Shown piece after piece: positions 24,514 to 27,798 of a DNA stretch of 64,000 nt (position 1 is the stretch's first letter; every line of letters starts with the position of its first letter). Origin of the DNA: Fulvivirga ligni (lineage in GTDB: Bacteria > Bacteroidota > Bacteroidia > Cytophagales > Cyclobacteriaceae). The position numbers and the translations under genes are program-made. The stretch covers positions 4,321,001-4,385,000 of the forward strand of contig NZ_CP089979.1 in NCBI RefSeq assembly GCF_021389935.1, read 5' to 3'. Under the pieces are notes generated by a model. The model ran no database searches. It was not told the origin of the DNA and saw only the letters and a list, made by a program, of their open reading frames with translations.

Positions 24514-26085
24514 TTAGAAAGGAGCATCGTCCTCATCCGGACCGCTATAACCAAAGCCACCGCCTGAAGAATTGCCATTATCCTCGTTTAATCTACTTCC
24601 CAAAGTGATAGTACCAGGACTATCGTCAAACTCTGCAGGTATACCACCAGCATCAGGGAATCCTCCGCCAGCAAAGCCTCCTGGATCCAAATCTGCGAAT
24701 TTGGTGTATTTACCAATAAATTTAAGACTAACGTTTTCTAATGAACCACTTCTGTGCTTCGCGATGATTACTTCACCAGTACCCGTGGTAGGCATACCAT
24801 TCTCATCTTCAGTAATACCGTAGTATTCAGGACGGTAAAGGAACATTACCATATCCGCATCCTGCTCAATTGATCCTGATTCCCTCAAATCCGAAAGCTG
24901 TGGTCTCTTATCTCCACCCCTGGTTTCCACGGCCCTACTTAACTGAGATAGTGCAATTACCGGTACGTTAAGCTCTTTTGCAATCTGCTTCAGCGCCCTG
25001 GATATGGATGCAATTTCCTGCTCACGGTTACCCCCACCTTTACCAGAGTCTCCACTCATCAGCTGCAAGTAGTCAATAACTATCAGCTGAATGTCGTTCT
25101 GAGCTTTAAGACGTCTACACTTCGCTCTTAATTCAAGAATGGAAAGCGCCGGAGTATCATCTATAAATATTGGGGCACTACTTAGCTTATTGGTTTTATG
25201 AATTAGCTGCTGCCACTCATAATCAGCCAGGTTTCCCTTTTTAATCTTTTCACTTTCCAGCTCTGCCTCAGCAGAGATAAGCCTGTTTACCAGCTGTACT
25301 GATGACATCTCCAGTGAGAAGATAGCCACAGCATGGTTAAAGTCTACGGCCGCGTTTCTAAGTGCAGAAACTACGAATGCGGTTTTACCCATCGCAGGAC
25401 GAGCCGCAATGATCACAAGGTCAGTTCTTTGCCAGCCAGATGTTACTCTATCTAAAGCAGAGAAGCCACTTGGCACCCCGGTAAGTCCGTCTTTATGATT
25501 TTTCCTTTCCTCTAATTCTTGAATAGCCTGAGCCATCAAAGAACGCATGTTATCATAGTTCTTTCGGATGTTAGCTTCAGAGATTTCGAAAAGAGATGAT
25601 TCTGTTTTATCTAACAGCTGAAATACATCAGTAGTATCTTCATAAGCATCGTGCTGAATCTCAGATGATACGCGAATTAATTCACGTTTAATTGACATCT
25701 CAATTATTACACGCGCATGAAATTCTACGTTAGCCGCAGAACTTACCTTAGACGTAAGCTCAGCCAGGTAATAAGATCCCCCCGTCATTTCCAGCTTGGC
25801 GTTCTTACGTAGCTGATTAGCCACAGTACGCATATCTACTGGCTCCGAGTTATTAAAGAGCTCCACAATGGCATTATAAATTTCCTTGTGAGCATCCTTA
25901 TAAAAACTACCTGGTTTTAGAATATCAATTACGGTGGTAAGTGCGTCTTTTTCAAGCATTAACGCACCCAAAACTGCCTCTTCCAGATCGATTGCCTGAG
26001 GAGGAACTTTCCCCAAACCATCGTTTACATCACGCGCCATACGATTTGGCTTCAGCCCTACTCTGAGAGACGAATTATTTTCCAT
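24514..26085 (-). CDS. dnaB: Replicative DNA helicase
   Basis: This is the hexameric 5'-3' replication helicase. The N-terminal domain (about 25-130, LEEAVLGALMLEKDAL) is followed by the RecA-like domain with Walker A AARPAMGKTAFV near 235 and Walker B IQLIVIDYLQLMSG near 345. The DnaB motif RESGSIEQDADMVMFLYRPEYYG lies near 425, written here in two parts, RESGSIEQDAD and MVMFLYRPEYYG. A glycine- and acid-rich tail (GGGFGYSGPDEDDAPF) ends the protein, like the flexible tails of SSB-interacting proteins. At 523 residues it is slightly longer than E. coli DnaB because of that tail. No intein is present. It faces away from the DnaA-box cluster upstream. Confidence 0.97.
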   Translation of the reverse strand: MENNSSLRVGLKPNRMARDVNDGLGKVPPQAIDLEEAVLGALMLEKDALTTVIDILKPGSFYKDAHKEIYNAIVELFNNSEPVDMRTVANQLRKNAKLEMTGGSYYLAELTSKVSSAANVEFHARVIIEMSIKRELIRVSSEIQHDAYEDTTDVFQLLDKTESSLFEISEANIRKNYDNMRSLMAQAIQELEERKNHKDGLTGVPSGFSALDRVTSGWQRTDLVIIAARPAMGKTAFVVSALRNAAVDFNHAVAIFSLEMSSVQLVNRLISAEAELESEKIKKGNLADYEWQQLIHKTNKLSSAPIFIDDTPALSILELRAKCRRLKAQNDIQLIVIDYLQLMSGDSGKGGGNREQEIASISRALKQIAKELNVPVIALSQLSRAVETRGGDKRPQLSDLRESGSIEQDADMVMFLYRPEYYGITEDENGMPTTGTGEVIIAKHRSGSLENVSLKFIGKYTKFADLDPGGFAGGGFPDAGGIPAEFDDSPGTITLGSRLNEDNGNSSGGGFGYSGPDEDDAPF

Positions 26086-26439
26086 GTAGTGGTTGCTATT
26101 TGATTAGTTCAACTGATTCTAGCTTCAAACGTAAAAAGAATTTCTGCCACTACCAATTCGGTGTGCATTGCTGCAAAAATTGCAAACAGTATACAGAAAA
26201 GGTTATATTCTATGCCATATTTGGAAAATTCTTACACTGCTTAAACAGTTTATCCACATTGCAATTTTACGCTATCCACAAATGCCTAACGCAAAATGTT
26301 GAAAACTCATTCACTTATAAACAAAAAATATCGTTATCCACATTTTTATCCACATCTGTTTAAAGGTAGATTTTTAGCATCCATTTATAATTTTTATCTT
26401 AATTTTGACCTTTAATCAAAGAACCTACAGAAAGAAAAT
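26086..26439. other. Candidate replication origin (or DnaA-regulated region) between dnaB and mpl
   Basis: This 354-bp gap contains no convincing gene. TTATCCACA, the perfect DnaA box, occurs at 26250-26258, 26334-26342 and 26346-26354, and CTATCCACA (one mismatch) at 26272-26280, all in the same orientation. AT-rich stretches lie at 26306-26333 and 26384-26416, suitable as an unwinding element. The neighbours diverge: dnaB leftward, mpl rightward. TAATTTTG at 26400-26407 could be the -7 element for mpl. The alternative is a DnaA-controlled dnaB promoter. Confidence 0.65.
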
Positions 26440-27798
26440 ATGCAGAACATACACTTTATTGCCATAGGCGGTAGCATAATGCACAACCTCGCTATTGCGC
26501 TGCATAAAAAGGGGTATACTATTAGTGGTTCTGATGATGAAATTTTCGAACCATCATACAGTAAACTAAAGAAATACGACTTACTTCCTAAGCAGGAAGG
26601 CTGGCAAACCGATTTAATTACCAACGACCTTGATGCCGTTATAGTAGGAATGCACGCTAAGCCGGACAACCCGGAATTAGCAAAGGCCAAAGAACTAGGA
26701 ATAAAGATATACTCATTCCCTGAATATATTTACGAGCAATCTAAAGATAAGCAGAGAGTGGTAATAGCAGGTAGTCATGGTAAAACTTCCATCACCTCAA
26801 TAGTAATCCATGTATTGAAGCACTTCAAACGCAAGTTCGACTTTGCCGTAGGTGCGCAGCTGGAAGGCTTTGAATTGATGGTACAGCTTACTGATGCTCC
26901 TATCATTATTATAGAAGGTGATGAATACTTATCATCTCCTATAGACTCCACTCCTAAATTTTTAAAGTATCACCATCACATTGGTCTTATCAGTGGAGTA
27001 GCGTGGGATCACATTAACGTATTCCCATCTGAAGAAAACTATGTAAGCCAGTTTGACAAATTCGCAGATGCCTCACCAAAGGCCGGTACTTTGGTGTACT
27101 GCGAGGAAGATCCTATGGCTACAGTAATAGGAGCTAAAGGGCGTGAAGATGTACATGAAATTGCTTACAACACTCACCCTTACGTAATAGAAAATGGGAC
27201 CACTTATCTGATTAACGGAAAAGAGAATATTCCTATCAAGATATTTGGAAAGCATAACCTACAAAACATCAATGGCGCTAAAGAAGTACTGAAAAAAATC
27301 GGTATCTCTGAAGAAGAGTTTTATGATGCCATTGAATCTTTTAAAGGTCCGCATAACAGATTGCAGCTTGTGAAGCAAAACGAGCAAACCGCTGTCTACA
27401 AAGACTTTGCTCATGCACCTTCAAAGGTAAAAGCCACAACTTTGGCACTTAGAGAGCAATATGCAGAAAGAGATTTGGTAGCCTGCCTTGAGCTACATAC
27501 GTTCAGCAGTCTTAACAAGAGCTTTCTGTCTCAGTATAAGGGAAGCATGAAATATTCGTATAAACCTATCGTTTATTATAACCCGGATACGATTGCTCAC
27601 AAAGGTCTGGAGCCTATCAGCAAAGAGGACATTATAAAGGCCTTTGATGAAAGAAACCTGAAGGTATATACTGACAGCAATGAATTAATGGCATATCTGA
27701 AAGATCAGAACTGGAAAGACAAAAACCTGCTTTTAATGAGCTCAGGAACGTTTAACCATCTGAATTACGAAGAATTAGCTACAGAAATTATAAACTAA
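26440..27798 (+). CDS. mpl: Murein tripeptide ligase (UDP-MurNAc:L-Ala-gamma-D-Glu-meso-DAP ligase)
   Basis: Mpl reattaches recycled murein tripeptide to UDP-N-acetylmuramic acid in the cytoplasm. The N-terminus MQNIHFIAIGGSIMHNLAIALHKKG (the IGGxxM nucleotide-binding start) is that of Mpl rather than MurC. The Mur-ligase ATP loop is AGSHGKTSITSIV near 110. The central EGDEY and the C-terminal domain with DFAHAPSKVKAT are also present. Its 452 residues fit the family. The 3' end is 9 bp from the exonuclease gene, so the two are probably co-transcribed. Confidence 0.93.
   Translation: MQNIHFIAIGGSIMHNLAIALHKKGYTISGSDDEIFEPSYSKLKKYDLLPKQEGWQTDLITNDLDAVIVGMHAKPDNPELAKAKELGIKIYSFPEYIYEQSKDKQRVVIAGSHGKTSITSIVIHVLKHFKRKFDFAVGAQLEGFELMVQLTDAPIIIIEGDEYLSSPIDSTPKFLKYHHHIGLISGVAWDHINVFPSEENYVSQFDKFADASPKAGTLVYCEEDPMATVIGAKGREDVHEIAYNTHPYVIENGTTYLINGKENIPIKIFGKHNLQNINGAKEVLKKIGISEEEFYDAIESFKGPHNRLQLVKQNEQTAVYKDFAHAPSKVKATTLALREQYAERDLVACLELHTFSSLNKSFLSQYKGSMKYSYKPIVYYNPDTIAHKGLEPISKEDIIKAFDERNLKVYTDSNELMAYLKDQNWKDKNLLLMSSGTFNHLNYEELATEIIN

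What the first reader, a model, noticed from the sequence alone, without database searches (positions are those of the whole stretch)
26086..26439. Candidate chromosomal replication origin between dnaB and mpl
Seen: TTATCCACA occurs three times exactly (26250, 26334, 26346) and once with one mismatch (26272), all in the same orientation within 105 bp, next to AT-rich DNA. Gene orientation switches here: 18 of 21 genes to the left run leftward and 12 of 15 genes to the right up to 42 kb run rightward, as expected for genes co-oriented with forks leaving an origin. Beyond 43 kb the bias is lost, which weakens the argument. Inference: this is oriC, or at least a DnaA-titrating or DnaA-regulated site controlling dnaB.
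Basis: partly seen in the sequence, partly recalled or inferred. Interest (0 to 1): 0.75.

Follow-up and report, generated by a model that had tools for sequence, protein, structure and literature searches.

The report
DnaA-box control site at dnaB
The cluster of DnaA-binding sites is real, but it is very unlikely to be where this chromosome starts copying itself; it is probably a conserved control site in front of the gene for the DNA-unwinding helicase, through which the protein that starts replication could also control that gene.

Summary
Three exact DnaA boxes and one near-exact box lie in one orientation between divergent dnaB and mpl. The host (inferred Fulvivirga, Cytophagales) is a single 6.52-Mb contig whose likely oriC is at 838.2-838.6 kb: nine boxes within one mismatch, a 92% AT bin, parS sites 4.5 kb and gidA/mnmG 2.6 kb away, and the GC-skew switch (fit: origin 0.84 Mb, terminus 4.04-4.06 Mb). 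The finding, at 4.347 Mb, is about 92% of the way to the antipode, with the same corrected skew sign on both sides. The cluster is still conserved: of 123 non-redundant dnaB-upstream regions, mostly Cytophagales, 96 carry a box, boxes point away from dnaB 164 times against 24, and 51 hold two tandem boxes 2-3 bp apart, the spacing E. coli DnaA prefers; shuffles and other DNA of the loci gave no such pair. Boxes also occur where no mpl is seen beside dnaB. Best reading: a DnaA operator of dnaB, as reported for Caulobacter and Mycobacterium tuberculosis. DnaA titration is the main rival. Binding and direction of control are untested; conservation fades outside the order.

The parts
26086..26439 (.). 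dnaB-mpl divergent intergenic region, the proposed DnaA operator region
   Evidence: boxes conserved upstream of dnaB in relatives
26250..26258 (+). DnaA box TTATCCACA, exact
26272..26280 (+). DnaA box CTATCCACA, one mismatch
26334..26354 (+). double DnaA box TTATCCACA-TTT-TTATCCACA (3-bp gap), the only pair of exact same-strand boxes with a 1-30 bp gap in the 6.52-Mb genome
   Evidence: 2-3 bp gap enriched in relatives; spacing rule of E. coli DnaA, PMC11317965 section 5
24514..26085 (-). dnaB, replicative DNA helicase (523 aa)
   Evidence: Pfam DnaB_C 1.7e-108 and DnaB N-terminal domain 3.2e-32
26126..26156 (-). predicted dnaB promoter: TTG at 26156-26154 and TANNTTTG-type element TACGTTTG at 26133-26126
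   Evidence: TANNTTTG between -39 and -60 of the dnaB start in 15 of 15 same-genus regions. Motif recalled as the Bacteroidota consensus; no start site measured
26400..26407 (+). predicted mpl -7 element TAATTTTG
   Evidence: similar sequence in the genus alignment
26440..27798 (+). mpl-like Mur ligase (452 aa), divergent neighbour

Best explanation
The cluster is a DnaA-binding operator in front of dnaB, not the origin. DnaA should bind cooperatively to the double box at 26334-26354 and to the helper boxes at 26250 and 26272, and change transcription of the replicative helicase gene dnaB, so that helicase supply follows initiator activity. In this genome the predicted divergent mpl promoter element lies 45 bp from the double box, so mpl may be affected too. 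Shown: the boxes, their spacing, orientation and conservation upstream of dnaB, and that the origin signals lie elsewhere. Inferred: DnaA binding, and control of dnaB. Direction is a guess; activation is slightly favoured because the boxes lie upstream of the predicted dnaB promoter here and because an M. tuberculosis DnaA variant that binds less upstream of dnaB also under-expresses dnaB.
For: Same genus: 15 of 15 regions (own included) have a box, 12 an exact one, 12 a tandem pair with a 2-3 bp gap. Non-redundant set: boxes in 96 of 123 dnaB-upstream regions, 164 pointing away from dnaB and 24 along it. By set: 39 of 50 regions (100 permuted motifs: mean 4.7, maximum 16) and 63 of 79 (mean 7.8, maximum 23). 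Density 7.10 and 3.60 per kb, against 0.42 and 0.27 in the rest of the same loci and 0.19 and 0.11 in their other non-ORF DNA. Tandem pairs with a 2-3 bp gap in 55 of 129 regions, none in 10 rounds of shuffles, 0 of 2120 other 300-bp pieces; gaps of 0-1 and 4-9 bp are rare. The window's pair is the only exact one in the genome; relaxed pairs number four in the 925 kb of own genome held, one here, one at the likely oriC, two elsewhere. E. coli DnaA prefers this spacing (PMC11317965 section 5). Boxes occur in 22 of 33 and 10 of 17 regions where no mpl was seen next to dnaB, and 14 such genomes, chosen because they had boxes, showed no Mpl match above 41% identity. One DnaA with the C-terminal DNA-binding domain is encoded. 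Precedents: Caulobacter (review PMC8203912, passages) and M. tuberculosis (PMC7738170, passages).
Against: No binding or expression data. In the window the double box is about 200 bp from the predicted dnaB -7 element but 45 bp from that of mpl. Five clear mpl orthologs lying away from dnaB have no box within 300 bp (one has two weak ones further up), but dnaB in the same five genomes has a box in only one, so they do not discriminate. Six of the 50 no-mpl regions end at or near a contig end, so mpl may merely be unseen there (L030, L086, L092, L113, L156, L158). Box position shifts between lineages, from -39 to -366. Many boxes are one-mismatch forms. Two of 30 regions, 9 of 20 by hand count or fewer boxes than two, and same-family L249 show that the site can be missing. 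Outside the order: 9 of 9 and 8 of 26 same-class regions (shuffle expectation 0.8 and 2.1) without strand bias, and 3 of 20 in other classes (1.3). E. coli's 16 DnaA-bound regions and the eight directly regulated B. subtilis gene sets quoted in the review do not include the replicative helicase gene. Species are related, so counts are not independent.
Confidence: 0.72

Rival explanations
1. DnaA-titration or DnaA-recycling locus (datA- or DARS-like): the boxes soak up or convert DnaA to time initiation, and lie next to dnaB only by inheritance.
For: Several consensus boxes and a double box in intergenic DNA. The E. coli datA and DARS loci carry double boxes too (PMC11317965 Table 1). dnaB is terminus-proximal in 4 of 4 single-contig genomes of the genus, measured from parS or the box cluster.
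Against: Boxes are found upstream of dnaB also where no mpl is seen, keep an orientation bias to dnaB, and in several genera sit at -61 to -63 from the dnaB start, near its predicted promoter, mostly as one-mismatch boxes. Titration needs none of these. In E. coli box density is higher towards the origin (PMC12371093, passages).
Confidence: 0.15
2. The operator serves mpl (a Mur ligase of cell-wall recycling) rather than dnaB.
For: In the window the double box is closer to the predicted mpl promoter.
Against: Boxes lie upstream of dnaB without mpl seen beside it in 22 of 33 named and 10 of 17 unnamed regions (a few at contig ends); no box within 300 bp upstream of five mpl orthologs that lie away from dnaB.
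Confidence: 0.07
3. It is the chromosomal oriC.
For: Dense box cluster with AT-rich DNA and a gene-orientation switch.
Against: GC-skew fit, parS, gidA and a larger box cluster all place the origin at about 838 kb. No fit with an origin at 4.34 Mb had the right sign. Corrected skew has the same sign on both sides of the finding. In three other single-contig genomes of the genus parS is also far from dnaB.
Confidence: 0.01
4. A relic or back-up origin that DnaA can still open.
For: Boxes all in one orientation beside 76% AT DNA, with one 3-bp-spaced pair.
Against: No stretch like the 92% AT bin at 838 kb; no skew trace; in relatives the boxes are found with dnaB.
Confidence: 0.04
5. Chance cluster.
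For: Genome-wide box number is at background.
Against: 0 of 300 shuffles; conservation within the order.
Confidence: 0.01

Closest known systems
DnaA-bound site upstream of dnaB in Mycobacterium tuberculosis (PMC7738170; passages seen)
   Same: DnaA binds in front of the replicative helicase gene, away from oriC; a DnaA variant binding less there under-expresses dnaB
   Different: Different phylum; shown there by pull-down sequencing, inferred here from sequence; the sites themselves were not compared
DnaA regulon member dnaB in Caulobacter crescentus (Hottes 2005 as cited in review PMC8203912; passages of the review seen)
   Same: Predicted DnaA boxes upstream of dnaB, dnaB in the DnaA transcriptional regulon
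   Different: Alphaproteobacterium; regulation was inferred there by delaying dnaA transcription, not measured here
E. coli double DnaA boxes (nrdA, polA, purH, nrdD; PMC11317965, section 5 read)
   Same: Two tandem boxes 2-3 bp apart upstream of a replication or nucleotide gene
   Different: dnaB is not in the E. coli list of 16 bound regions
E. coli datA, DARS1, DARS2
   Same: DnaA-box clusters away from oriC
   Different: Here found with one gene across an order; accessory IHF and Fis sites not assessed

Membership tests
Chromosomal replication origin (oriC) | Cluster of DnaA boxes | tested here: met
Chromosomal replication origin (oriC) | GC-skew sign change at the locus | tested here: not met
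   strand-corrected skew negative on both sides; free fit on a 20-kb grid puts the origin at 0.84 Mb
Chromosomal replication origin (oriC) | parS sites nearby | tested here: not met
   matches within one mismatch only at 843 kb; nearest two-mismatch match to the finding is at 4654491, and two-mismatch matches are at chance level
Chromosomal replication origin (oriC) | Strongly AT-rich unwinding element beside the boxes | tested here: inconclusive
   at most 76% AT per 50-bp bin here, 92% at 838 kb
Chromosomal replication origin (oriC) | Peak of read depth in growing cells | not testable with these tools
   no reads held
DnaA-regulated promoter (DnaA regulon site) | DnaA boxes upstream of a replication gene and its promoter | tested here: met
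   the promoter is predicted only
DnaA-regulated promoter (DnaA regulon site) | Tandem double box with a 2-3 bp gap | tested here: met
DnaA-regulated promoter (DnaA regulon site) | Conservation with the target gene across species | tested here: met
   within the order; weak and without strand bias beyond it
DnaA-regulated promoter (DnaA regulon site) | DnaA binds and changes transcription | not testable with these tools
   needs ChIP-seq and reporters
datA/DARS-type DnaA-control locus | Promotes DnaA-ATP hydrolysis or nucleotide exchange with IHF or Fis | not testable with these tools
   biochemical
datA/DARS-type DnaA-control locus | Non-coding multi-box cluster away from oriC | tested here: met

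The most novel reading that the evidence does not exclude
Initiator-to-helicase transcriptional control (DnaA acting on dnaB) is a recurrent bacterial circuit: reported in an alphaproteobacterium and an actinomycete, and present in Bacteroidota as the Cytophagales-wide double-box operator found here. In this Fulvivirga genome it acts from a terminus-proximal locus, while dnaA itself has no box within one mismatch in the 5 kb upstream of it.
Probability: 0.45. Interest if true: 0.6.

Novelty: new member of a known kind. Interest (0 to 1): 0.42.

Why it matters
It corrects a tempting oriC call and places this chromosome's likely origin at about 838 kb. It also offers a comparative footprint for DnaA as a transcription factor in Bacteroidota, with the replicative helicase gene as the likely target and the same 2-3 bp box spacing that E. 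coli DnaA prefers. In the held papers I found no report of this for Bacteroidota; I saw only the search listings, some of them cut to the best rows, and most subscription papers are not held.

Tried and rejected
oriC at the finding: rejected. rRNA operon orientation as a test: the 16S family search returned no match in this single-contig genome, so it was unusable. A first relatives count mis-handled the strand of the loci and was replaced. Searches ended in script errors (file name; an empty region); searches replaced them. One search's printed output was cut. Decoupled mpl as a discriminator: weak, because dnaB in the same five genomes mostly lacks boxes too. Class- and phylum-wide conservation: 9 of 9 same-class regions in the first draw was not repeated in the second (8 of 26), so no class-wide claim is made. 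The first draw held 41 genomes, of which 29 besides the own genome gave loci; of the second draw's 30, 26 regions were counted. Other box pairs in the genome: 650088/650097 lies between chloride-channel and thioredoxin-like genes and was not pursued.

Full report
WHAT IS THERE. The window and the genome as wholes have a background number of boxes (22 against 19.9 expected; 84 against 78 for the reversed motif), so the cluster itself is the signal. Two of the boxes, 26334-26342 and 26346-26354, form a tandem pair with a 3-bp gap, the only exact same-strand pair with a gap of 1-30 in the genome.

WHERE IT IS. The window is 4321001-4385000 of a single 6,523,894-bp contig. The closest named locus by DnaB is Fulvivirga kasyanovii (L092, 89% identity), whose match coordinates agree with those of same-genus genome G001 (lineage). 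The genus name for the window is therefore inferred.

IT IS NOT oriC. A larger, though less dense, box cluster lies at 838 kb: four exact boxes from 838329 to 838563 and nine within one mismatch from 838182 to 838563, beside a 50-bp bin of 92% AT. It has no exact double box, but one relaxed pair at 838318. Two exact parS and one one-mismatch parS lie at 843058-843166. gidA/mnmG starts 2.6 kb from the cluster at its near end and ybeY follows. In relatives, parS within one mismatch lies 3.7-4.8 kb from an exact box in G026, G039 and G044 (the box list was cut within G026 and did not show G005, G011 and G014). I sampled the chromosome and corrected GC skew for gene strand (622 ORFs). The two-breakpoint fit, on a 20-kb grid with the replichore share limited to 30-70%, gave an origin at 0.84 Mb and a terminus at 4.04-4.06 Mb; it leaves 71% of the variance, and several stretches near both breakpoints are close to zero or of the other sign (for example 645 kb 0.000, 1128 kb -0.014, 4120 kb -0.003). 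The finding, at 4.347 Mb, has corrected skew of -0.061 +- 0.011 on its left and -0.033 +- 0.018 and -0.039 +- 0.014 on its right: no switch. From the 838-kb cluster it is about 92% of the way to the antipode. In G005, G011 and G014, single-contig genomes of the genus, dnaB is likewise about 83%, 79% and 90% of the way from parS to the antipode (genome sizes rounded by the tool).

WHY IT IS STILL A REAL SITE. Some genomes seem to occur in both sets; 123 regions remained after removing near-duplicates. Of these 96 have a box within one mismatch, 164 boxes pointing away from dnaB and 24 along it. Permuted motifs reach at most 16 of 50 and 23 of 79 regions, against 39 and 63 observed. Box density is 13-17 times that of the rest of the same loci. 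Tandem boxes 11-12 bp start to start (gap 2-3 bp) occur in 51 of 123 regions, against 4 for 9-10, 8 for 13-14, 2 for 15-16 and 1 for 17-18; a second rise lies at 19-22 (22 and 27 regions). Ten rounds of dinucleotide shuffles gave none, and 2120 other 300-bp pieces of the loci, mostly coding, gave none, against 55 of 129 regions. In the 925 kb of the own genome held, four such relaxed pairs exist: this one, one at the likely oriC and two elsewhere. The spacing is the one shown to matter for E. coli DnaA by ChIP-seq and mutation (PMC11317965, section 5). In the Algoriphagus, Cyclobacterium and Cecembia loci listed, a box, often a one-mismatch form, commonly lies at -61 to -63 from the dnaB start, upstream of a TANNTTTG element.

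WHOSE SITE. In the window the double box is nearer the predicted mpl promoter than that of dnaB. But boxes also occur in 22 of 33 named and 10 of 17 unnamed regions where mpl was not found next to dnaB, six of those 50 regions being short ones at or near contig ends. Fourteen of the 22 named genomes, chosen because they have boxes, show no Mpl match above 41% identity. Five clear mpl orthologs lying away from dnaB have no box within 300 bp (one has two weak ones at -329 and -410), although dnaB in the same genomes has a box in only one of five. dnaB is thus the more likely target; effects on mpl in this genus are possible.

HOW FAR IT REACHES. Beyond the order the signal weakens: 9 of 9 and 8 of 26 same-class regions (shuffle expectation 0.8 and 2.1) without strand preference, and 3 of 20 in other classes (1.3). 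Within the family it can be missing: L056 and L249 have none.

MECHANISM AND PRECEDENT. The genome has one DnaA match with the C-terminal DNA-binding domain. The simplest reading is that DnaA binds these boxes and modulates dnaB transcription. DnaA binding upstream of dnaB was found in M. tuberculosis, where a variant that binds less there also under-expresses dnaB (PMC7738170, passages), and Caulobacter dnaB is listed in the DnaA regulon (PMC8203912, passages). Against generality, neither the 16 E. coli regions nor the eight B. subtilis gene sets quoted in that review include the replicative helicase gene. Passages of PMC4447404 and PMC12371093 were also seen. Titration remains the main rival. 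No binding or expression evidence was available.

VERDICT. Observation confirmed; oriC very unlikely; the fallback idea of a DnaA-regulated site at dnaB is well supported by comparison and untested by experiment.

Noticed in passing
G000:C1:838182-838563 (L023:12182-12563): Likely true oriC: nine boxes within one mismatch, a 92% AT bin, gidA/mnmG 2.6 kb and parS 4.5 kb away.
   Followed up: yes
G000:C1:1737816 onward (dnaA, L002:364-1788; L025): dnaA lies 0.9 Mb from the likely oriC and has no DnaA box within one mismatch in the 5 kb upstream of it, so box-based autoregulation is not evident.
   Followed up: partly
G000:C1:650088-650105 (L026:5088-5105): Two exact DnaA boxes directly abutting, between a chloride-channel gene and a thioredoxin-like gene.
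   Followed up: partly
G038, G052, G055, G101, G106, G112: dnaB open frames of 841-1245 codons whose match to the query is split, as expected if DnaB carries inteins there.
   Followed up: no
dnaB-upstream regions of relatives: Besides the 2-3 bp gap, a second preferred box spacing at about 19-23 bp start to start.
   Followed up: no
single-contig genomes of the genus: G000, G005, G011, G014: dnaB is terminus-proximal in 4 of 4 (about 79-92% of the way from the origin marker to the antipode).
   Followed up: partly
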